A DNA stretch of 64,000 nucleotides from an uncultured Clostridia bacterium (lineage in GTDB: Bacteria > Bacillota > Clostridia > UBA1381): NCBI GenBank assembly GCA_947591315.1, contig CANQDD010000005.1, forward strand, positions 1 through 64,000, given 5' to 3'. Shown piece after piece: positions 2,808 through 42,021 of the stretch; the first letter of the stretch is position 1, and every line of letters starts with the position of its first letter. The notes beneath the pieces are model-generated. The model had not been told where the DNA came from. It saw only the letters and a program-made list of their open reading frames with translations, and made no database searches. A program made the translations under genes and the position numbers.

Positions 2808-4073
2808 TTAATCAGCCATAACCTCCTCGGGTGCTGTTATTTTACCTGTAATCGCGCTTGCCGCCGCTACCTCGGGGCTTGCAAGATATACCTCGCTCTC
2901 GACGTGTCCCATACGTCCTACGAAGTTTCTGTTCGTGGTCGAAACACATCTCTCGCCCTCGGCTAAGATACCCATGTGACCGCCCAAGCACGGTCCGCAG
3001 GTCGGAGCGGAAATTACGCAGCCCGCCTCAACGAGCGCCGCGAGCGTTCCGTCCTTTAACGCCTCAAGATAAACCGCCTGAGTAGCCGGGAACACGATCG
3101 CGCGTATGCCCTTCTTTACTTTTTTGCCCTTTAAAATTTCAGCCGCGCGTCTTAAATCGGAAATTCTTCCGTTAGTGCACGAGCCGATCACGACCTGGTC
3201 AATCGCGACGTCGCCCCAGTTTTCGGGAGTGCGCGCATTTTCGGGCAGATGCGGGAACGCTACCGTATGCGGAACTTTCGACAAATCTATGTCTATGACC
3301 TTCACATACTCCGCGTCCGAGTCGGCTGTGAATACCTTGTATTCTCTGTCCGAATGAGCCTTCATATACTCAACCGTGAGGTCGTCAACCTCAAAAATGC
3401 CGTTCTTCGCTCCGGCTTCGATCGCCATGTTCGCGATAGTGAAACGGTCGTCCATCGTGAACGAATGCATACCCTCGCCGGTAAATTCCATTGACTTATA
3501 AAGCGCGCCGTCAACGCCTATCATGCCGATTATATGCAAAATCAGATCCTTGCCGCTCACGTACTTGTTAAGCTTGCCCGTGAGATTAAACTTTATCGCC
3601 TCGGGGACTTTGAACCACGCCTTGCCCGTAGCCATACCCGCCGCCATATCCGTCGAACCTACGCCCGTCGAGAACGCGCCGAGAGCGCCGTATGTACAGG
3701 TGTGCGAGTCCGCGCCTATCACAACGTCGCCCGCTACAACAAGTCCCTTTTCGGGAAGCAGCGCGTGCTCGATCCCTACCTCGCCTACCTCAAAGTAATT
3801 CACGATATCATTCTCGTTCGCGAATTTGCGCACCTTTAGCGCCTGCTGCGCCGATTTAATATCCTTGTTCGGCGTGAAATGGTCCGGAACGAGCGCGATT
3901 TTCGCCTTGTCGAACACGCCGCCGCCGATCTTATCAAGCTCGTTGATAGCTACCGGCGACGTAATATCGTTGCCCAGAACCAAATTCAAATCCGCCATGA
4001 TCAAATCTCCCGCCTTGACGGACTCCTGTCCCGCCGCCGCAGCGAGAATTTTCTGCGTCATTGTCATTCCCAT
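2808..4073 (-). CDS. leuC: 3-isopropylmalate dehydratase large subunit
   Basis: [34 protein letters not shown], aconitase-family cysteines. Confidence 0.95.
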
Positions 4074-4106
4074 GTAAAAATCACCTCTAAGTTTATAATT
4101 GTTATT

Positions 4107-4135
4107 ATTTTATCACAATTCAGTAAATCTTGCAA
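4107..4135 (-). promoter_or_regulatory. Candidate SigA promoter for leuCD-TA-leuB
   Basis: Minus strand TTGCAA-N17-TAAAAT upstream of leuC. Confidence 0.5.
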
Positions 4136-4152
4136 TATGTTTTCGGGATTTT

Positions 4153-5502
4153 TTACTCCTGCAATATCCGCTTGCTTCGCGCGGCGAACATAGCTGTTGT
4201 GGTGCAAGCCGCTATGACGTCGCTTACGGGCTCAGCCAAGAGCAGTCCCCACACGCCCATATCGCCGATTTTCGGCAGTATCAGCGCGAGCGGGAAAAGC
4301 AGGATTATTTTTCTAAGACACGCCAGAAACATTGATATCTTCGCCTCTCCGAGCGCTAAAAACGTCTGCTGGCACGCGCTCTGCGCGCCCATTATCGCCA
4401 TGCCCGCCAAAAATACGCGCACGCCGTTCCGTCCTATATGTATAAGCTCTGCGTCGCTTGTGAACATTCGCATGAACAGTTCGGGGAACGCTTCTATTAC
4501 GCCGATCACAGCGACCGAAAATATTACGCTCGTCGCAAACAGCACGCGAAACGCCTTTTTTACTCTGTCCATATTCTTCGCGCCGAAGTTGTAGCTGATG
4601 ATCGGCTGCGCGCCCTGCGAAAAGCCCTGCATAGGCATCCAAATAAGCTGCGTCAGGCTGAACAGTACCGACATAAGCGCGACGTACAGATCGCTTCCGT
4701 ATTTTAACATTCCGTTGTTAAATGTAAGCTGAATAAGACATTCCGTTGCGTTCATCACAAACGGCGAAATACCGAGCGACAGCACCGACAGCACTACCGC
4801 GCGGCTCAGCTTCAGATTTTTTAAACGTATCTTAAGTATCGTCCTTTTGCCGGTCAGAAATTTCACGACCCACACGCACGACACCGCCTGCGCTATTATC
4901 GTCGCGAGCGCCGCGCCCTTTACGCCCATATGGAGCGCATAGATAAAAATCGGGTCGAGAATTATGTTTATCACCGCGCCGATGCAGACCGTCGCCATGC
5001 TGATTTTCGTAAAGCCCTGATTGGTGATGAACATATTAAGTCCCAATACAAGCTGCACGAACACTGTTCCAAGAAGATATATTCCCACATAATCCGACGC
5101 GTACGGCAAAGTGCTCTCGCTCGCGCCGAACAGCAGGAGTATTTTGTCCTTTGTGAGCAGAAAAAACGCCGACAGAACTACCGAAAATATTATAAGGAGC
5201 ATAGTACAGTTTCCGAGGATTTTTTCGGCTTTTTCGTTATCGCCCCCGCCCATCGCAATAGCGGCTCTCGGCGCGCCGCCCGCTCCGGCGAGCATAGCGA
5301 ACGCGGATATCAGCATTACGATAGGGAACGTTACGCCCATTCCGGCAAGCGCGAGCGAGCCTGTTTCGGGGATATGTCCGACGTATATTCTGTCAACGAC
5401 GCTGTAGAGCAAATTCACGAGCTGCGCCAGCACCGTCGGCACGGCGAGGCGGAACAGAAGCCCTGTGACGGGCGCTTTACCGAGTATATTTTCGTCAGCC
5501 AT
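4153..5502 (-). CDS. MATE family efflux transporter
   Basis: 12-TM MATE-like protein: PTVLAQLVNLLYSVVDRIYVGHIP...GFSQGAQPIISYNFGA. Confidence 0.9.
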   Translation of the reverse strand: MADENILGKAPVTGLLFRLAVPTVLAQLVNLLYSVVDRIYVGHIPETGSLALAGMGVTFPIVMLISAFAMLAGAGGAPRAAIAMGGGDNEKAEKILGNCTMLLIIFSVVLSAFFLLTKDKILLLFGASESTLPYASDYVGIYLLGTVFVQLVLGLNMFITNQGFTKISMATVCIGAVINIILDPIFIYALHMGVKGAALATIIAQAVSCVWVVKFLTGKRTILKIRLKNLKLSRAVVLSVLSLGISPFVMNATECLIQLTFNNGMLKYGSDLYVALMSVLFSLTQLIWMPMQGFSQGAQPIISYNFGAKNMDRVKKAFRVLFATSVIFSVAVIGVIEAFPELFMRMFTSDAELIHIGRNGVRVFLAGMAIMGAQSACQQTFLALGEAKISMFLACLRKIILLFPLALILPKIGDMGVWGLLLAEPVSDVIAACTTTAMFAARSKRILQE

Positions 5503-5520
5503 TTATATCACTTCCGTATG

Positions 5521-7725
5521 TTATTTCACCTTTTTTAGTTTTGCGAACGCAGCCATAAGTCTCTTAAATCCGACGCTTTCAAAGTCGATTTCGAGTATGC
5601 AGTCGTTACCGGCGGGCGTTGCCTTAAGCACCGTGCCGCGTCCGAACGCGCGGTGTTCGACCGTGTCGCCCTCCTTGAACGACAAAAATTCGGCTGCGGA
5701 TAACGACTTCTTTTCAGGCTTTAGGTACCTGTTTTTGTTCGTCGTCACTATATCGCCGAAGCCTGCCATGCGAACGCCCTCGGCGAATTTCGGAAATACC
5801 TTTGTCCTGTCGTCGAGGTATTCGGTCGGTATTTCCTCAAAAAATCTCGACGGCAGCTCTATGTTTGTTTTGCCGTGAATTGTGCGGCGTATCGCCTTTG
5901 TGATGTGGAGCGTGTCCTTCGCGCGCGTTATCGCGACGTAGCAGAGACGGCGTTCCTCCTCAATGTCGTCCTCGCTGTTTATCGAGCGTATACCGGGGAA
6001 AAGTCCTTCCTCCATACCGGTAAGGAATACGACGGGAAATTCAAGTCCCTTCGCGCTGTGTATCGTCATAAGCACAACGGCGTCCTCATTTTCGTCGTAG
6101 CCGTCGAGGTCGCTTATAAGCGAAATACCCTCGAGAAATTCCGCGAGCGTTGCGTCCTCGCTCTCCTTCTCAAACTCCGCTATGACCGACATAAATTCGC
6201 CGAGGTTTTCAATCCTCGTCTTGCTCTCCGTCGTGTTTTCCAAAACGAGCGCGGGCATATATCCCGTGTCGTTTAATATCCTTTCCGTAAGCTCGTGAAG
6301 CGGAACGGCATCCTTTATTTTGCGCAGCGTCTCTATCATCTCCGAAAACGCGAGCAGCTTGCTTATTGCCGTCTTAAATTCGGGGTAATTGTCAGCGTGC
6401 GACACGACCTCGTAAAGCGGAAGCTCGTTTGCAGCTGCGATTTCACGCGCACGGTCGAGCGTCGCGTTGCCTATTTTACGCTTCGGCTCATTTATTATAC
6501 GCGCGAGGCTCACGTCGTCCTTCGGGTTGTGGATAAGGCGCAGGTACGCGATAATATCCTTTATTTCCTTGCGCTCGTAGAACCGCAGTCCCGACAGCAC
6601 CTTATACGGGATATGCTCGCGCATCATGATTTCTTCTATAACGCGCGACTGTGCGTTCGTGCGGAAAAGCACCGCGCAGTCCCCGAACACTCCGTTTTCC
6701 TCGTAATATTTTTTTACCTCGTTCGCGACGTAGCGAGCTTCGTCGTACTCGTTCGCGCCCGTGAACGTTATAACCTTGCCGCCGTCACCCTTCGCCGTCC
6801 AAAGCTCCTTGCCGAGCCTTCCTCGGTTGTGCGCGATCACGGCGTTCGCCGTGTCGAGAATGTTTTGAGTGGAGCGGTAGTTGCGGTCGAGAGTGATTTT
6901 TTTCATGTCGGGAAAATCATCTTCAAAATTTAAGATGTTTCCTATATTCGCGCCGCGGAATTTGTATATGCTCTGATCGTCGTCGCCTACGACGCACAGG
7001 TTGCGGCTGCCCTGCGCGAGCAGGTTTATAAGCATGTACTGCGAGTTGTTCGTGTCCTGGTACTCGTCCACGAGTATGTAGCGGAAACGGTTCTGATAAC
7101 GCATAAGCACGTCGGGGTTTTCGCTTAAAATTTTGACCGTGTTCAATATTATATCGTCAAAATCGACCGCGTTGTTGTTGTAAAGCTTCGTCTGATAGCG
7201 GTAGTAAATTCTCGAAATAATACTCATTCTGTAATCGCTGCGGTACGTGTTCTCAAAGGTCGCGGGATCCATGAGGTCGTTTTTCGCGTTGCTGATTATT
7301 GACAGCACATTGCGCGGCGGAAAGCTCTTTTCATCAATGTCAAGCTCACGCATACATTCTTTCAGTACAGTGCGCGAATCTGCCGTGTCGTATATGAGAA
7401 AATCGCGTCCGTAACCGAGAAAATCAATGCAGTTCCTTAATATTCTCGCGCAGACCGAGTGAAACGTACCCGCCCAAATATCAGCCGCCTCGTCGCCGAG
7501 AAGTCTCTCTATACGCGTTTTCATCTCGTTTGCAGCCTTATTTGTAAACGTGATTGCGAGTATGTTCCACGGATTTATCTTCTTTTCGGAAATCATATAC
7601 GCGATTCTGTTCACAAGCACCGTCGTTTTACCGCTGCCTGCGCCGGCAAGCACAAGAACAGGTCCTTCCGTCGCAAGCACCGCTTCCCTTTGTCTGTCGT
7701 TTAATTTATCAAGCATCTTATACAT
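5521..7725 (-). CDS. pcrA: UvrD/PcrA-type ATP-dependent DNA helicase
   Basis: LNDRQREAVLATEGPVLVLAGAGSGKT, DDDQSIYKFRGA, LMTIHSAKGLEFPVVFLTG; start set at MYKMLDKLNDRQ. Confidence 0.93.
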   Translation of the reverse strand: MYKMLDKLNDRQREAVLATEGPVLVLAGAGSGKTTVLVNRIAYMISEKKINPWNILAITFTNKAANEMKTRIERLLGDEAADIWAGTFHSVCARILRNCIDFLGYGRDFLIYDTADSRTVLKECMRELDIDEKSFPPRNVLSIISNAKNDLMDPATFENTYRSDYRMSIISRIYYRYQTKLYNNNAVDFDDIILNTVKILSENPDVLMRYQNRFRYILVDEYQDTNNSQYMLINLLAQGSRNLCVVGDDDQSIYKFRGANIGNILNFEDDFPDMKKITLDRNYRSTQNILDTANAVIAHNRGRLGKELWTAKGDGGKVITFTGANEYDEARYVANEVKKYYEENGVFGDCAVLFRTNAQSRVIEEIMMREHIPYKVLSGLRFYERKEIKDIIAYLRLIHNPKDDVSLARIINEPKRKIGNATLDRAREIAAANELPLYEVVSHADNYPEFKTAISKLLAFSEMIETLRKIKDAVPLHELTERILNDTGYMPALVLENTTESKTRIENLGEFMSVIAEFEKESEDATLAEFLEGISLISDLDGYDENEDAVVLMTIHSAKGLEFPVVFLTGMEEGLFPGIRSINSEDDIEEERRLCYVAITRAKDTLHITKAIRRTIHGKTNIELPSRFFEEIPTEYLDDRTKVFPKFAEGVRMAGFGDIVTTNKNRYLKPEKKSLSAAEFLSFKEGDTVEHRAFGRGTVLKATPAGNDCILEIDFESVGFKRLMAAFAKLKKVK

Positions 7726-34687: not shown

Positions 34688-36010
34688 TTAGAACTCAAGC
34701 TCCTCGCCGAGTATTTTTTCTATAAATTCATACCCGTCGTTCAGAACGGGCGTTATTTTCACGTTAAGCGCCTTTTCCACGTCCTCCGTCGTAACGTCGT
34801 CAAGGAAAATGTTGTCGTCGTCGCGGAGCATGCTGTGCGGTATAAGAAGCTCGTCGGTGTCTATCCTGCCGCGGAGCTGCTCTATCATATCGCCGCCGCA
34901 CACAAGTCCCGACACCGTCACGCCGCCGCCGAAAAAGTTGTTCTTTATCGGGTACACGCTTACCGTAACGCCCTCGCATTTCTTTTCGATTTTACGCGCA
35001 AGCTCCGTTATAAACCCGCACGCTATCTCGCCCGTCGCGACCGACACGCGTCGGCTGCGCGTTTTTTTCGGCACAAGCTTCAGCGCGCTTTCAAATTCCT
35101 CGCGCATACTCGCGATAAGTCCCACGCCGTTTTCTATCTGCGGAAAACCCTCGTACTCCTCGGCGGACGGTATTTCAACCCCCGCGTCGGCGTAAAACTC
35201 GTCGGACAGGTACACAAGGCGCGTGCCGTATTTTTTCAGAAATTCGTCCTGTATTTTGCCGACAAACTCTATCGTCTCCGCGCTCGTTTCAGGCGTGAAC
35301 GGCTTTAACGGGTACAGCCCGTCGCGGTAGCGCGTAAGTCCCACCGGCACGACCGATACGCTGTTTACATTCGGGTAGAGCGCGGCAAGGTCGTAAAGCG
35401 TTTTTTTGAGATGCTCGCCGTCGTTAATTTCGGGGCACAGGACTATCTGGCAGTTCATGACTATTCCGTTTGCGGCGAACCGTTTCATTATATCGTAGCA
35501 GCTTCCGGCGAAGCGGTTATTAAGCATTTTGCACCGAAGCTCCGGCTCGGTCGCGTGTACGCTTACGTTTATCGGCGATACGCGCATTTCGATAAGACGG
35601 TCGATCTCGTCGCCCGCGAGATTTGTGAGCGTGACGTAATTCCCCTGCAGGAACGACAGGCGTGTGTCGTCGTCCTTAAAGTAGACCGTCTCGCGCATAC
35701 CCTTTGGCAGCTGGTCGATAAAGCAGAATATACACTTGTTCGTGCAGCTTTGCGCGTCGTCGATAAGACCGTCCGCAAACTCTATGCCGAGATCCTCGTA
35801 ATCGTTTTCGACCGTTATTATCTCTGTATCGCCGTTTTTTTTGAGGACTTCGAGCGTTACCTCGTATTCGGCGGTAAGGTAGCGGTATTCGAGAATGTCA
35901 TGGAACCCGCGCCCGTTTATCGTTACGAGCTTGTCCCCCGCCTCCAGACCGGCGTCGTCCGCTATGGAAAACGGCTCTACATATTTAATTGTCGTGTCCG
36001 CTTTTCTCAT
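34688..36010 (-). CDS. DUF512 family PDZ/radical-SAM-like protein
   Basis: PDZ start, SCTNKCIFCFIDQLPKGMRETVYFKDDDTRLSFLQGNYVTLTNL. Confidence 0.9.
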   Translation of the reverse strand: MRKADTTIKYVEPFSIADDAGLEAGDKLVTINGRGFHDILEYRYLTAEYEVTLEVLKKNGDTEIITVENDYEDLGIEFADGLIDDAQSCTNKCIFCFIDQLPKGMRETVYFKDDDTRLSFLQGNYVTLTNLAGDEIDRLIEMRVSPINVSVHATEPELRCKMLNNRFAGSCYDIMKRFAANGIVMNCQIVLCPEINDGEHLKKTLYDLAALYPNVNSVSVVPVGLTRYRDGLYPLKPFTPETSAETIEFVGKIQDEFLKKYGTRLVYLSDEFYADAGVEIPSAEEYEGFPQIENGVGLIASMREEFESALKLVPKKTRSRRVSVATGEIACGFITELARKIEKKCEGVTVSVYPIKNNFFGGGVTVSGLVCGGDMIEQLRGRIDTDELLIPHSMLRDDDNIFLDDVTTEDVEKALNVKITPVLNDGYEFIEKILGEELEF

Positions 36011-36124
36011 AGCCTTATCTCCGCCGCAATATTATTCCTATTATATTATCCCATATTTGGAAGAAATAATCAAGAGGAAATTGGGAATTTGTTATTATTT
36101 TCGCCTGCGGCGCACAAATTCCTC

Positions 36125-36153
36125 TTGTAATTTTACGGCACATATAGTATAAT
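36125..36153 (+). promoter_or_regulatory. Candidate promoter for the alcohol dehydrogenase
   Basis: TTGTAA-N17-TATAAT. Confidence 0.55.
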
Positions 36154-36191
36154 ACGGTATATAGGTATACAAAATATCGGAGGAATACATA

Positions 36192-37337
36192 ATGAAAAGC
36201 TTTGACATCAGAACAAAGATATATTTCGGCGAGGGCGCGCTCGACAGGCTCAGCGACCTGCCGTACAAAAAGGCGCTTATAATAACCGATCCGTTCGTCG
36301 CGAAAAGCGGTCTTTTACAGATGATCACAATGCGTCTGCACGACGCTTACACGGAATTTGAGGTGTTTTCCGACGTTGTGCCGGACGCGCCGATAGAGAA
36401 AATCTCTCTTGGCGTTAAGAAGATGCTCGAATACGATCCCGACTGCGTTATAACCGTCGGCGGCGGCAGCGCTATTGACAGCGCGAAGTCGATACGTGAG
36501 TTCGCGTCGCGCTCGACCGGTAAGCATGTCGCGCTTATCGCGATACCGACCACGTCCGGCACAGGCTCGGAGGTAACGTCGTTCGCGGTGGTGTCCGATC
36601 CCGAAAAGGATATAAAATATCCGCTCGTGTCCGACAGCATGCTCCCCACGGAGGCAATACTCGACGCGGCGCTCGTTAAAAGCGTTCCGGCGAACGTCAC
36701 GGCTGACACGGGCATGGACGTTCTCACGCACGCGATAGAGGCTTACGTGAGCATTAACAACAACGAATTTTCAGCAGCGCTCGCGGAAAAGGCGATTGAA
36801 ATATGCGGCACGTTTCTGCTGCGCTCGTACCTCGACAACAACGACGAGCACGCGAGAAGAAAAATGCACGTCGCGTCATGTCTCGCGGGACTTGCGTTCA
36901 ACAGCGCGTCGCTCGGTCTTAATCACGGTATCGCGCACGCGCTCGGCGGCAAGTTCCACATTCCGCACGGCAGGGCGAACGCGATGCTTCTCCCCCATGT
37001 TATCGAGTACAATTCAGGCATAAACAAGCACTCGAAAAGTCAGAAGGAGTACCCGAAATGCGTTGAAAAGTACGTGAATGTCGCGAAGCTTCTCGGCGTA
37101 AACAACTTCAACGAGATTACGACTATCCGCGCTCTTGTGGGCTGGATGCAGTTTATGATGAAGGAAATGAACATTCCTATCTCGATTTCGCAGATAGGCA
37201 GCATAGACAAGACCGAATACTTTAACGCTATCGACTCGATGGCGGACAAGGCTCTCGCCGATGCGTGCACCGCGACAAATCCGCGCGTGCCGACAAAGCC
37301 GGAGGTCGTGCAGATTTTGGAGCACTTGTACGAGTAA
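36192..37337 (+). CDS. Iron-containing alcohol dehydrogenase
   Basis: VGGGSAIDSAKSI, AIPTTSGTGSEVTSFAVV, GLNHGIAHALGGKFHIPHGRANAMLLPHVIEYN. Confidence 0.93.
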   Translation: MKSFDIRTKIYFGEGALDRLSDLPYKKALIITDPFVAKSGLLQMITMRLHDAYTEFEVFSDVVPDAPIEKISLGVKKMLEYDPDCVITVGGGSAIDSAKSIREFASRSTGKHVALIAIPTTSGTGSEVTSFAVVSDPEKDIKYPLVSDSMLPTEAILDAALVKSVPANVTADTGMDVLTHAIEAYVSINNNEFSAALAEKAIEICGTFLLRSYLDNNDEHARRKMHVASCLAGLAFNSASLGLNHGIAHALGGKFHIPHGRANAMLLPHVIEYNSGINKHSKSQKEYPKCVEKYVNVAKLLGVNNFNEITTIRALVGWMQFMMKEMNIPISISQIGSIDKTEYFNAIDSMADKALADACTATNPRVPTKPEVVQILEHLYE

Positions 37338-37475
37338 AAGGATATCCGCGCTCTATTTTTTCGTGCGCTTTTTTAACTATTATAGTATGTACATGACTCA
37401 AAAACTATAATTATGCACATTGTCAGTCCGATAAATCGTTTTTTGTAATTTTTGCGTGAAACAAGGGTTGTATTG

Positions 37476-37504
37476 TTGACATGTGTGGTAAATATTGATA
37501 TAAT
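37476..37504 (+). promoter_or_regulatory. Perfect consensus SigA-type promoter for the 4-gene cassette
   Basis: TTGACA(37476-37481)-N17-TATAAT(37499-37504). Confidence 0.85.
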
Positions 37505-37555
37505 GGTAAAGTATTGCGGGCGGCACAGCCGCCGAAGCATAAAAAGGGAGAATGT

Positions 37556-38845
37556 ATGACTGCGGAGGATATAATTCAAAACAATAAAGCCGAAAATACG
37601 GCACTGCTGCAAACGAATGACAAATGCGATAAATTCGACTATCTGGCCGCGGTTATATGCGGAGCAATCGGCGGATTGATTGATGTTTTCCTCGTCGGAA
37701 TGCCCGACGACAGCATACTGGGCAAATGGACCGACGCGCAGGTGGACAAGGCTGTAATGGGCTTTGCAAAATTGAACGGTTGGAATCCACACCAGTCACA
37801 GCAGGACAACATATCGAGCGCTATCGGTTTTTTGGAGAGAAAATTTCACGTAAATTACGACCAAAGATATACGGCGGATGTGGGAAATCAATTCAACATG
37901 AGCTCCAAAGCACACCATATGATGTCGCTTGCTCACTCGCCAAGCCCCATAGGACTGTTTTTCTCGATTCTTAATCAGTTTACATCCACGGCAACCTTCG
38001 TTGCGGACGGGCAACTGATAACAATCGCGACCGAAACCTTCGAGCTGCATGGCGGGAATTTTATCGCAAAAATTTTTTGCGGATTTACAAACTGGCTCGG
38101 GCATCTTATGTCGGATATAGCCGGAAGCTCCGGCAGCCGCGGAAACGGCGGACGAGGCAGCGGCATAGTCATTCCTTTTTATGAGCTGTTCTCATTCTGT
38201 AAATTCGGCAATTTCAAGGTGGGAGATGCCAGGCAGGATTTAGCCGATATAGCTAAAGGCGCGTTTGAGGAGGGATTGGATTTCCGTTTCGGAATTGCCA
38301 TGACAATTCCCGTAGTAATGACGGATTTGTCAATCAGACTTGTATGGGCAATAAGGCGTCACTTTCACTACGGAAGGTCTATTGGCGAGTGCATACCGAC
38401 ACAAAAGCATGCGGATTTAAGGGTAATGCTGCTAATCGGCAACGGCACGCTTTGTGTTATGGACGGGCTTGACGCGGTAATCCGCGGCGATATCCACAGA
38501 TTAAATTTAATCGCATGGTTCAGACTTATTATACTTGTTTTGAAGGAAATCTTTATAAGATTGGGAATAAAGGACGCTCTTCAGTCACAGATTGACGCAT
38601 TCAAACGAATAAACGCCGCGCTTGCCGGATATTTGCGGGAGCTTGAAGCCTTGGATATCGAGCGTTTCCGCGAGGAGACCGAACAGTACAACAGCATGAT
38701 GGCCGCTCTTGAAAATATACATACGGAAAAGGAACTGAACGTCGTGCTTTTGAATATGTTTGACAAGCTTGGCATTGAAAAGCCTTATAAAGGTTCGTTT
38801 GACGCCTTTATGCAAAACAAAAATGAGAGGCTGGAATTTAAGTAA
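37556..38845 (+). CDS. Multi-TM membrane protein of unknown function
   Basis: ATG after GGGAG; hydrophobic segments LAAVICGAIGGLIDVFLVG, FIAKIFCGFTNWLGHLMSDIAGSSGSRGNGGRGSGIVIPFYELF, MTIPVVMTDLSIRLVWAI. Confidence 0.8.
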   Translation: MTAEDIIQNNKAENTALLQTNDKCDKFDYLAAVICGAIGGLIDVFLVGMPDDSILGKWTDAQVDKAVMGFAKLNGWNPHQSQQDNISSAIGFLERKFHVNYDQRYTADVGNQFNMSSKAHHMMSLAHSPSPIGLFFSILNQFTSTATFVADGQLITIATETFELHGGNFIAKIFCGFTNWLGHLMSDIAGSSGSRGNGGRGSGIVIPFYELFSFCKFGNFKVGDARQDLADIAKGAFEEGLDFRFGIAMTIPVVMTDLSIRLVWAIRRHFHYGRSIGECIPTQKHADLRVMLLIGNGTLCVMDGLDAVIRGDIHRLNLIAWFRLIILVLKEIFIRLGIKDALQSQIDAFKRINAALAGYLRELEALDIERFREETEQYNSMMAALENIHTEKELNVVLLNMFDKLGIEKPYKGSFDAFMQNKNERLEFK

Positions 38846-39108
38846 TGTTTGAGTGTTCAAAATGCGGAGCATGCTGCCGTAACCTCGACAAATCCCCGCT
38901 TTACAGAGAGCTTGACATGGGAAACGGGGTATGCAGATATCTTAACGGTAATCTTTGCGGTATATACGATAACAGACCGTTATTGTGCCGTGTAGATGAA
39001 TGTTATGAGCGTTATTTTAAGGATATAATGGACATTGACGAATATTACCGATTAAATTATGAGGCTTGTAAGAAATTACAAAATATACAATCACAAGGAG
39101 GAAAATAA
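38845..39108 (+). CDS. YkgJ-type cysteine-cluster (Zn/Fe-chelating-like) small protein
   Basis: MFECSKCGACCRNLD...CRYLNGNLCGIYDNRPLLCRVDECY; CxxCxxCC cluster; TAATG overlap with the upstream gene. Confidence 0.8.
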   Translation: MFECSKCGACCRNLDKSPLYRELDMGNGVCRYLNGNLCGIYDNRPLLCRVDECYERYFKDIMDIDEYYRLNYEACKKLQNIQSQGGK

Positions 39109-39110
39109 TT

Positions 39111-40067
39111 ATGCCAATACCATTTATTTTGGGAGCAATAGCTATTGCTGCGGGAGCGGCGGGCGTCGGTTCCGGAATTCACGGAGCGGCAAAAATGAAG
39201 GACGCCAATGATACAATGCAGTCTGCAAAGTATATGCATGAGCAGAATATACAAAAATTTGAAGAGCAGAACAAAATCACAACAGAGTCTATGGATGCAT
39301 TGGGTACGAAAGAACTGGAAATACTCAAAAGCTTTAAAACCTTTTCCGATGCTTTTGAAAAGCTCCAGAACAAACCGAAGTTTAAGAAACTCAATATAAA
39401 CGGTGTAAAGCTGCCGGTGTATTCACCGGAGCAGTTGAAAAAAGTATCAGTCGAAGCGGGCGCCGCTTTGGGAGGACTCGGCGGCGCCGCAGCCGCTAGT
39501 ACAGCCGCCGGTGTTGTGGGCGGAGCTGTTTCAAACGCTACTCTCGCGGCACTCGGAGGCGGTTCGCTGGCGGCAGGAGGCGGCGGCATGGCTCTCGGAT
39601 CGGCAGTACTGGGAGCATCAACCCTCGGAATCGGTCTGTTGGTTGGAGGAGTTATATTCAACATTACCGGCTCGAAGCTTTCAGACAAGGCGGACGAAGC
39701 ATGGTCTCAAATGGAGAAGGCTCAGGAGAAAATCGAAAAAATTTGTGAATATCTCCAAAATTTGAAATCTATATCAGAAGAATATTTAGAGGCTCTGACG
39801 CGCGTTGAGAAAATATACAACAGACACCTTCGCAAGCTGCAGGATATTGTGAACGTTCAAAGGAAAACTGACTGGAATATTTTAACACAGAACGAGCAGA
39901 TGACGGTTGAAAATACAGTGCTGCTTGTCAGTCTCCTATATAATATGTGCAAGGTTCAGCTTGTTCTCAAATCGGATAATGAAGATGAAATGAACGAGAT
40001 TAACACGGAAGAAGTCCATAAATCAATGCGAAACGCCGACGTATGCATAGAACAGCTTGCGGCGTAA
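39111..40067 (+). CDS. Gly/Ala-rich hydrophobic-hairpin protein with flanking helices, unknown function
   Basis: MPIPFILGAIAIAAGAAGVGSGIHGAAKMKDAN..., central AALGGLGGAAAASTAAGVVGGA...LGIGLLVGGVIFNITG flanked by charged helical segments; AAGGAGG RBS. Confidence 0.8.
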   Translation: MPIPFILGAIAIAAGAAGVGSGIHGAAKMKDANDTMQSAKYMHEQNIQKFEEQNKITTESMDALGTKELEILKSFKTFSDAFEKLQNKPKFKKLNINGVKLPVYSPEQLKKVSVEAGAALGGLGGAAAASTAAGVVGGAVSNATLAALGGGSLAAGGGGMALGSAVLGASTLGIGLLVGGVIFNITGSKLSDKADEAWSQMEKAQEKIEKICEYLQNLKSISEEYLEALTRVEKIYNRHLRKLQDIVNVQRKTDWNILTQNEQMTVENTVLLVSLLYNMCKVQLVLKSDNEDEMNEINTEEVHKSMRNADVCIEQLAA

Positions 40068-40086
40068 ACAAAAAGGAGGAATAAAA

Positions 40087-40488
40087 ATGTATCTCAATAA
40101 ACTTAACGAAAATCAAAAAGGGTTGTTTTTACAGCTTGTATATGCGGCGGCAATGGCGAACGGCGAATATGTCGAACAGGAAAAGGCTATAATAGAAACC
40201 TATTGCCGTGAAATGGACACAGAATTTGATCCGAAGGACGCGACGAATGACGTCGATGCTGTAATCTCCGTGCTAAGCTCAATCTCGACCGACGAAGAAA
40301 AACGTATAATTGTTTTTGAAGTTATGGGACTTATACTGGCGGACTATACATACGATGACGCCGAGAAGGGCTTTATGGGTAAGCTCTCGGCGGCGTTCGG
40401 AGTTGACAAAGCGTATATTGACAAATGCGAGATGCTTATAGATGAATATTTGAAGCTCCAGTCGGATATAAACGCGTTGGTGCTTTAA
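40087..40488 (+). CDS. TerB-like helical domain protein
   Basis: LYFLQ-type start LNENQKGLFLQLVYAAAMANGEYVEQEKAIIETYCREM...EEKRIIVFEVMGLILADYTYDDAEKGFMGKLSAAFGVD; AAAGGAGG RBS; start trimmed from 40057. Confidence 0.75.
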   Translation: MYLNKLNENQKGLFLQLVYAAAMANGEYVEQEKAIIETYCREMDTEFDPKDATNDVDAVISVLSSISTDEEKRIIVFEVMGLILADYTYDDAEKGFMGKLSAAFGVDKAYIDKCEMLIDEYLKLQSDINALVL

Positions 40489-40512
40489 AATTTAATCGGT
40501 CGGCTTAAAGTG

Positions 40513-40545
40513 AAAGAGCGTATCAACAAGTGATACGCTCTTTTA
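40513..40545. terminator. Bidirectional terminator between the cassette and gltD
   Basis: AAAGAGCGTATCA-ACAAG-TGATACGCTCTTT, perfect 13-bp stem, then TT. Confidence 0.85.
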
Positions 40546-40566
40546 TAATTCCGTTTTAGCGAAGTT

Positions 40567-42021
40567 TTATTTCATCAAATATTCGTCAACCGCAGCCGCG
40601 GCTTCTCTGCCCTCGCGTATCGCCCAGACGACAAGGCTCTGTCCCCTGCGGCAGTCGCCGGCGGCAAACACTCCTCTAAGGCTCGTCTTGTGGTCGGTTT
40701 CCTTCGCGCTTATGTTGCTTCTCGCGTCGGTTTCAAGCGTAAGCTGACGGAGTAAGTCCTGTTCAGGCCCCAAAAAGCCCATCGCGATAAGCACAAGCTC
40801 GCAGTCGCGCACCTGTTCCGTTCCCTTTACGGGTACGGGCGATCCCGTTGACCAGTCGACCTGCACGGTATGCACCGCCTTGACGCGTCCCTTTTCGTCG
40901 CCCTCGATTTTCGTTACCGTGGTGGTGTACTCGCGCGGATCGTGACCGTAAAGCTCTATCGCTTCCTCCTGACCGTAATCCGTCTTTTTAACTCTGGGCC
41001 ATTCGGGCCACGGGTTATTCGGAAGTCTGTTCTCCGACATTTCGGGCATGATCTCAAGCTGTGTAACGCTCCTGCAGCCGTGGCGGATCGACGTGCCCAC
41101 GCAGTCCGTGCCCGTGTCGCCGCCGCCTATCACGATAACGTTTTTTCCCTCAGCGCTTATGTACTTTCTGTCCTCAAGCTTGCTGTCCAAAAGGCTCTTT
41201 GTGTTGGCTTTCAAAAAGTCAACGGCGTAATGCACGCCCTTTAAGTCCGCGCCGGGGACGGTGAGCGGTCTCGGATTTGCCGCGCCGGTGCAGAGCACTA
41301 CCGCGTCAAATTCGTTTACGAGCTTTACAGCCGGATAGTTCTTGCCTATCTCGGAGTTTAAGCGGAACGTAACGCCCTCCTTCTGCATGAGGTCTACGCG
41401 TCTTTGTACCACGGATTTGTCGAGTTTCATATTCGGTATGCCGTACATCAGAAGTCCGCCGGCTCTGTCCTCGCGCTCAAACACCGTTACGCGGTGTCCC
41501 ATTTGGTTGAGCATATCGGCAGCCGCAAGACCGGAAGGCCCGCTTCCGACTACCGCGACGCGCTTTTCCGTCGATTTTTCGGGTATGCGCGGCACGACCT
41601 TGCCCTCGGCAAACATTGTGTCTATTATGTGGCACTCGATGTTTCTCACCGTTACAGCCGGATCGTGCATACCGAGTGTGCATGAACCCTCGCAAAGCGC
41701 CGGGCACACGCGTCCCGTAAATTCAGGGAAGCTGCTTGTGAGCGATAATCGTCTGTACGCTTCCTCAATGTTGCCTTGGTACACGAGGTCGTTCCACTCA
41801 GGGATAAGGTTGTTCAGCGGACAGCCTATCGACGTGCGTCCGACCTGCACTCCCGCGTGGCAGAACGGTATTCCGCAGTCCATGCAGCGCGCGCCCTGCA
41901 AACGCAGCTTTTCTATGTCAAAATGCGTGTGAAATTCGTCCCAGTCCTTTATTCTCTCCTTCGGAGGTCTGTCCGCCGGGAGCTGTCTTTCATATTCCAA
42001 AAATCCTGTCGGTTTTCCCAT
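40567..42021 (-). CDS. gltD: Glutamate synthase small subunit
   Basis: CMDCGIPFCH, VAVVGSGPSGLAAADMLN, VIGGGDTGTDC. Confidence 0.94.
   Translation of the reverse strand: MGKPTGFLEYERQLPADRPPKERIKDWDEFHTHFDIEKLRLQGARCMDCGIPFCHAGVQVGRTSIGCPLNNLIPEWNDLVYQGNIEEAYRRLSLTSSFPEFTGRVCPALCEGSCTLGMHDPAVTVRNIECHIIDTMFAEGKVVPRIPEKSTEKRVAVVGSGPSGLAAADMLNQMGHRVTVFEREDRAGGLLMYGIPNMKLDKSVVQRRVDLMQKEGVTFRLNSEIGKNYPAVKLVNEFDAVVLCTGAANPRPLTVPGADLKGVHYAVDFLKANTKSLLDSKLEDRKYISAEGKNVIVIGGGDTGTDCVGTSIRHGCRSVTQLEIMPEMSENRLPNNPWPEWPRVKKTDYGQEEAIELYGHDPREYTTTVTKIEGDEKGRVKAVHTVQVDWSTGSPVPVKGTEQVRDCELVLIAMGFLGPEQDLLRQLTLETDARSNISAKETDHKTSLRGVFAAGDCRRGQSLVVWAIREGREAAAAVDEYLMK

What the first reader, a model, noticed from the sequence alone, without database searches (positions are those of the whole stretch)
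37476..40545. Self-contained four-gene cassette: multi-TM protein, YkgJ Cys-cluster, Gly/Ala hairpin protein, TerB-like protein
Seen in sequence: four tightly packed plus-strand genes (TAATG overlap, 2-nt gap, strong GGAGG sites). They are bounded by a perfect TTGACA-N17-TATAAT promoter and a perfect 13-bp bidirectional terminator, inside an otherwise minus-strand housekeeping neighbourhood. By eye the region is more AT-rich than its flanks. Established knowledge: TerB-like domains occur in Ter stress-response and phage-defence contexts (for example Shango). YkgJ-type proteins carry a metal-binding CxxCxxCC cluster. Inference: a membrane-stress or abortive-infection-type system, with the Gly/Ala-rich hairpin protein as a possible pore former, the TerB-like protein as sensor or regulator and the YkgJ protein as a metal-dependent partner. 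No nuclease, protease or NTPase was recognised, so the mechanism would be unusual.
Basis: partly seen in the sequence, partly recalled or inferred. Interest (0 to 1): 0.8.

Follow-up and report, generated by a model that had tools for sequence, protein, structure and literature searches.

The report
Four-gene split Bunzi-type phage-defence cassette
A horizontally acquired four-gene cassette in a Clostridia genome turns out to be a rearranged relative of the Bunzi anti-phage system, in which one known protein is split into two genes and a dedicated metal-cluster protein has been added; it matters because nobody knows how Bunzi works and this natural dissection shows which parts are separable.

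Summary
The four genes, the consensus promoter and the tight packing are real. Gene 1 is a strong homologue of BnzB of the Bunzi anti-phage system (PADLOC, 425 bits, E 1.6e-127). Gene 3 is a hairpin/coiled-coil protein (weakly PADLOC PDC-M09A) and gene 4 a TerB protein; profiles place both inside canonical BnzA, so BnzA is split in two here. Gene 2 is a YkgJ-type protein with eight invariant cysteines, in no Bunzi description I found. In 81 species loci it accompanies BnzB in 41, mostly with overlapping reading frames; in 391 Clostridia genomes this subfamily occurs only in BnzB-YkgJ-hairpin cassettes, one of them decayed. Neighbours of relatives include WYL regulators, Wadjet, Mokosh and PD-T4-6 genes. 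A near relative has the clean empty site (3,167 bp absent), showing that the terminator is ancestral, not cassette DNA. Most likely function: membrane-acting, infection-aborting phage defence with TerB as input module. The membrane step is inferred; structure searches found no known fold. New variant of a known kind.

The parts
37340..40506 (+). Inserted segment (the acquired cassette)
   Evidence: Absent from same-genus genome G008, where window 34692-37339 and 40507-42009 are contiguous at about 94% identity; low GC
37476..37504 (+). Sigma-70-type promoter, TTGACA-17-TATAAT with TG before the -10; inside the insertion
   Evidence: 12 of 12 matches
37556..38845 (+). Gene 1: BnzB-family polytopic membrane protein, 429 aa; lacks about 150 N-terminal residues of canonical BnzB
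   Evidence: PADLOC PDLC03834 E 1.6e-127, profile 157-478 of 504; AF2 pLDDT 86.5
38845..39108 (+). Gene 2: YkgJ-type Cys-cluster protein, 87 aa, eight invariant cysteines (C4, C7, C10, C11, C30, C38, C48, C75)
   Evidence: PF03692 26.2 bits, cut-off 23; alignment of 27; subfamily only in BnzB-YkgJ-hairpin cassettes among 391 genomes
39111..40067 (+). Gene 3: Gly/Ala hairpin flanked by long helices, 318 aa; corresponds to the hairpin/coiled-coil part of BnzA
   Evidence: PADLOC PDC-M09A 6.3e-15; profile hits BnzA at about 300-440; AF2 helices 24-83 and 190-249
40087..40488 (+). Gene 4: TerB-like protein, 133 aa; corresponds to the TerB region of BnzA
   Evidence: PF05099 24.8 bits, cut-off 24.4; hhalign to BnzA 158-291 E 9e-6; PDB 2ou3 E 2e-6
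40510..40546 (.). Bidirectional terminator of the old junction; not part of the cassette
   Evidence: same hairpin in the empty site of G008

Best explanation
This is a horizontally acquired, split form of the Bunzi anti-phage system. Shown: a BnzB-family membrane protein, a hairpin/coiled-coil protein and a TerB protein that correspond to BnzB and to two regions of BnzA, plus a dedicated eight-cysteine YkgJ protein coupled to BnzB. Inferred: the hairpin protein docks on BnzB at the inner membrane and holds it silent; TerB, the module that evolves fastest and moves or fuses most freely, reads an infection cue and passes it to the hairpin protein; the complex then damages or depolarises the membrane, which stops phage production at the cost of the cell. 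YkgJ probably loads or senses a metal (iron or zinc) needed by BnzB. Sub-confidences: Bunzi relative 0.95; phage defence 0.85; membrane effector 0.5; TerB as input module 0.45; YkgJ metal or redox role 0.4.
For: BnzB match E 1.6e-127. Canonical two-gene BnzA-BnzB loci (588 and 591 bits for a Vibrio plasmid) belong to the same BnzB family; on its tree BnzA-type versus hairpin-type needs only 2 changes. TerB aligns to BnzA 158-291, the hairpin profile to BnzA about 300-440, and a 182-aa hairpin relative to BnzA profile 264-411. Natural fusions link the parts: TerB-hairpin (L018), hairpin-TerB (L096), BnzB-hairpin (about 790 aa, L061). BnzB and YkgJ frames overlap in 33 of 40 loci. The YkgJ subfamily was found in 4 of 391 genomes: beside BnzB in three, and in a decayed BnzB-YkgJ-hairpin remnant in the fourth. 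Neighbours of relatives: 12 WYL regulators among 122 proteins, also Wadjet JetD, Mokosh MkoA, PD-T4-6 and mads6 matches. BnzB relatives on 481 plasmid records, 426 conjugative, one phage; clean empty site. Purifying selection on all four genes; TerB dN 0.75 against 0.12-0.15 for the others in one pair.
Against: No phage assay exists for this four-gene form. The canonical BnzA model does not hit any window protein, and the N-terminal parts of BnzA and BnzB are absent. Separate TerB was recognised in only 19 of 41 YkgJ-bearing loci, so it is not obligatory or is replaced by something unseen. Structure searches found no pore former or enzyme. In the window the cassette stands alone among housekeeping genes.
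Confidence: 0.6

Rival explanations
1. BnzB is an integral-membrane metal-dependent hydrolase distantly like YdjM (PF04307) that cuts a lipid or lipid-linked substrate once activated; YkgJ supplies its metal and the hairpin protein is a scaffold, not a pore.
For: Near-invariant H120, H127, H183, S186, D187 in a pattern HH/HR-x6-H-[SD]-P ... H-xx-SD-xx-[ST] ... G-x-P-x-P, in the same order as the YdjM motifs HRG-xx-HS ... H-xxx-D ... G ... P; hhalign of YdjM with distant BnzBs scored 25.5 against a maximum of 23.3 in 100 column shuffles; a dedicated Cys-rich protein.
Against: Against all BnzBs the score (21.1) lies within the shuffles (maximum 24.9); no YdjM match among 26 members; no fold match in PDB. 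The likeness was noticed by eye first and tested afterwards.
Confidence: 0.2
2. The cassette is not for phage defence but for envelope or metal/oxidant stress: a Ter-like stress module with a metal-binding YkgJ protein.
For: TerB and YkgJ names come from stress and metal contexts; the window copy has a consensus promoter, no WYL regulator and no defence neighbours.
Against: BnzB is the best-conserved part and belongs to a tested defence family; patchy, mobile distribution on plasmids and beside defence genes; only 10 of 399 phylum genomes and 21 of 391 class genomes carry BnzB.
Confidence: 0.08
3. YkgJ is an accessory passenger, for example an anti-anti-defence factor or a regulator of translation of BnzB, and plays no part in the effector.
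For: YkgJ is missing beside about half of the BnzB relatives and needs 10 changes on the BnzB tree.
Against: Overlapping frames in 33 of 40 loci, eight invariant cysteines, purifying selection, and no free-standing copies in 391 genomes.
Confidence: 0.3

Closest known systems
Bunzi (BnzA + BnzB; Millman et al. 2022)
   Same: Gene 1 is a BnzB homologue; the TerB and hairpin regions of BnzA are both present as genes; canonical loci fall in the same BnzB tree. TerB in Bunzi is stated in PMC10952713.
   Different: BnzA is split and lacks its N-terminal part of about 150 aa; BnzB lacks about 150 N-terminal residues; a YkgJ protein is added; gene order differs.
PADLOC candidate PDC-M09 (PDC-M09A + PDC-M09B)
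   Same: Gene 3 is a distant PDC-M09A (6e-15; a closer relative in L070 scores 1e-31).
   Different: No PDC-M09B in the window; BnzB-type partners share at most the C-terminal tail of PDC-M09B.
Shango (TerB, ATPase, helicase; PMC10250203)
   Same: A TerB-like protein in a defence operon.
   Different: No ATPase or helicase here.
YkgJ/UPF0153 Cys-cluster proteins (PF03692)
   Same: CxxCxxCC and the downstream Cys/RP motif.
   Different: A short subfamily found only with BnzB and the hairpin protein in the genomes sampled.

Membership tests
Bunzi | BnzB homologue | tested here: met
   PDLC03834 E 1.6e-127, 425 bits, profile 157-478 of 504
Bunzi | BnzA as one protein beside BnzB | tested here: not met
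   PDLC03833 does not hit any of the four proteins; none detected elsewhere in the genome, though that search had no positive control
Bunzi | TerB region of BnzA present | tested here: met
   As a separate gene; hhalign to BnzA 158-291 E 9e-6
Bunzi | Hairpin/coiled-coil region of BnzA present | tested here: met
   As a separate gene; profile hits BnzA about 300-440, best E 4.5e-9; direct hhalign weak
Bunzi | Protection against phage | not testable with these tools
   Needs a plating assay
PDC-M09 | PDC-M09A together with PDC-M09B | tested here: not met
   PDC-M09A weakly met, no PDC-M09B match in the window
Shango | TerB with ATPase and helicase | tested here: not met
   Only TerB present
YkgJ family PF03692 | Profile match above the curated cut-off and conserved cysteines | tested here: met
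   26.2 bits, cut-off 23; eight invariant Cys
YkgJ family PF03692 | Binds a metal or Fe-S cluster | not testable with these tools
   Needs purified protein
TerB PF05099 | Profile match above the curated cut-off | tested here: met
   24.8 bits, cut-off 24.4, marginal; alignment profile finds TerB-like 2ou3 at 2e-6
YdjM membrane hydrolase PF04307 | Profile homology with aligned His/Asp motifs | tested here: inconclusive
   Score just above shuffles for distant BnzBs only; no Pfam match

The most novel reading that the evidence does not exclude
A Bunzi-derived defence type that has made a metal- or Fe-S-cluster protein a dedicated component, so that a membrane effector is matured or redox-gated by YkgJ; in the held literature I found no YkgJ protein tied to phage defence.
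Probability: 0.3. Interest if true: 0.75.

Novelty: new variant of a known kind. Interest (0 to 1): 0.52.

Why it matters
Bunzi has no known mechanism (listed as unknown in the 2026 review PMC12926258). A widespread form in which BnzA is naturally split, its TerB part moves, fuses or disappears, and a metal-cluster protein is coupled to BnzB tells experimenters which parts are separable and which residues to change. It also gives annotation tools a type that the PADLOC models used here would show only as a lone BnzB.

Tried and rejected
Terminator as cassette boundary: rejected, it is in the empty site. The gene of about 320 aa upstream in many relatives as the N-half of BnzA: rejected, it is a WYL regulator. 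Pfam matches HRI2_3H, BAR, MitMem_reg and PDB matches to viral fusion proteins for the hairpin protein: taken as coiled-coil chance matches. PDB and BFVD fold searches: nothing at E <= 0.001. YdjM relation of BnzB: inconclusive. Viral contigs with gene 3 alone: no relative; with the BnzB alignment: three loci. The original Bunzi paper is not held, so its description comes from PMC10952713 and the PADLOC models.

Full report
Observation. The four genes, their spacing and the 12-of-12 promoter are as described. The cassette is richer in A+T than any other stretch of its size in the window (44.3% GC against a mean of 51.7%, none of 218 windows as low). A same-genus genome, G008, whose dehydrogenase protein is 99% identical, has window 34692-37339 joined straight to 40507-42009: the cassette is a clean insertion of 37340-40506. 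The promoter lies inside the insertion. The 13-bp terminator lies outside it and is in G008 too, so it belongs to the old convergent junction.

What the genes are. Gene 1 matches PADLOC BnzB at E 1.6e-127 over profile positions 157-478 of 504; gene 3 matches the hairpin protein PDC-M09A (6e-15); genes 2 and 4 pass the Pfam cut-offs for CxxCxxCC (PF03692) and, narrowly, TerB (PF05099). A review of shared defence domains lists TerB in both Shango and Bunzi (PMC10952713). Canonical Bunzi loci found here, on Vibrio and Lactococcus plasmids, have BnzA of 550-560 aa followed by BnzB of about 510-520 aa (BnzA 588 and 426 bits; BnzB 591 bits for the Vibrio protein).

BnzA is split. The TerB alignment of the cassette type aligns to BnzA 158-291 (hhalign E 9e-6, probability 83). 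The hairpin profile hits BnzA at about 300-440 in most canonical proteins, best E 4.5e-9, and the short hairpin protein of a distant relative matches the BnzA model at 264-411. A direct hhalign of the hairpin alignment was weak, so this half of the case rests on the other two results and on the shared position next to BnzB. Natural fusions in other genomes join TerB to hairpin (L018), hairpin to TerB in the opposite order (L096) and BnzB to hairpin (L061 and four more), which marks the three as one functional unit.

Conservation. A scan of 85,462 species genomes gave 176 relatives, of which the best 80 were read. With the window, 41 of 81 loci carry the YkgJ protein, and 19 of those also a separate TerB, directly before BnzB or after the hairpin gene. 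BnzB and YkgJ reading frames overlap in 33 of 40 loci. On the BnzB tree BnzA-type versus hairpin-type needs only 2 changes, YkgJ 10, so YkgJ is gained or lost more often; it also appears in distant lineages such as Lonepinella (L134). The tree is a quick one and many forks are weak. In 391 genomes of the class the YkgJ subfamily model, at E <= 1e-8, found four genomes: the window, two with the intact cassette, and one with a decayed BnzB tail, broken YkgJ and hairpin start in the same order. All four genes are under purifying selection in close pairs; in the pair L070/L072 TerB has dN 0.75 against 0.12-0.15 for the others, which fits fast evolution or replacement; in the closer pair L110/L111 TerB is not faster.

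Context. 122 proteins flanking YkgJ-bearing loci were scanned: 12 are WYL regulators, and there are Wadjet JetD, Mokosh MkoA, PD-T4-6 and mads6 matches. PD-T4-6 and MkoA models are kinase- or helicase-like and can ring on ordinary relatives, and no background set was scanned, so this is description and not an enrichment test. BnzB relatives are on 481 plasmid records (426 conjugative) and one phage. The window copy stands alone among housekeeping genes.

Structure. AlphaFold2 models gene 1 well (pLDDT 86.5), mostly helical, and the family has near-invariant Asp, His and Asn in or near the hydrophobic helices; no solved or viral structure resembles it. The hairpin protein has confident long helices 24-83 and 190-249 and an unresolved Gly/Ala segment 123-188; no fold match. 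A resemblance of the BnzB His/Asp motifs to YdjM-type membrane hydrolases, noticed by eye, came out borderline.

Mechanism. Shown: homology, splitting, co-conservation, mobility. Inferred: TerB as input, hairpin protein as transmitter or pore part, BnzB as membrane effector, YkgJ as metal supplier or redox sensor, outcome abortive infection. Bunzi's mechanism is listed as unknown in a 2026 review (PMC12926258), and no paper held here decides between pore and enzyme.

Verdict. A real, acquired, widely conserved split variant of Bunzi with a dedicated Cys-cluster protein. It fails the strict two-protein definition because there is no single BnzA protein, so it is filed as a Bunzi-family variant and not as Bunzi itself.

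Noticed in passing
window 37337-37340 and loci L154-L157: The site behind the dehydrogenase gene varies among near-identical relatives: gltD directly (G008), an HTH regulator plus a gene that looks like nadC by eye (G005, G009), a tyrosine-recombinase-like gene (G011). It may be a hot spot for insertion or rearrangement.
   Followed up: partly
L020, L021, L061, L062, L063: Single-gene BnzB-hairpin fusions of about 780-800 aa, a further form of the same system.
   Followed up: partly
L069 (phage NatCom_3357, PV036416.1), 3294-5847: A human-gut phage carries a BnzB-type gene with a hairpin-type gene, on the other strand from its holin and endolysin genes; possibly superinfection exclusion.
   Followed up: no
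L083, L087, L088, L095, L096, L108, L113, L147 and others: A WYL-domain regulator of about 320 aa lies at the upstream end of the cassette in about a dozen relatives; the window copy has none and a consensus promoter instead.
   Followed up: partly
L067 and L051, C-terminal ends of the BnzB proteins: The PDC-M09B models weakly meet only the C-terminal tail of these BnzB proteins (E 0.003-0.008), a hint that the tail is the docking part for the hairpin protein.
   Followed up: no
L110 9583-10598 and L111 9604-10609: Two TerB genes in tandem follow the cassette.
   Followed up: no
L205 7059-7688: A decayed BnzB-YkgJ-hairpin cassette: BnzB tail, frame-broken YkgJ and the first 63 residues of the hairpin protein.
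   Followed up: partly
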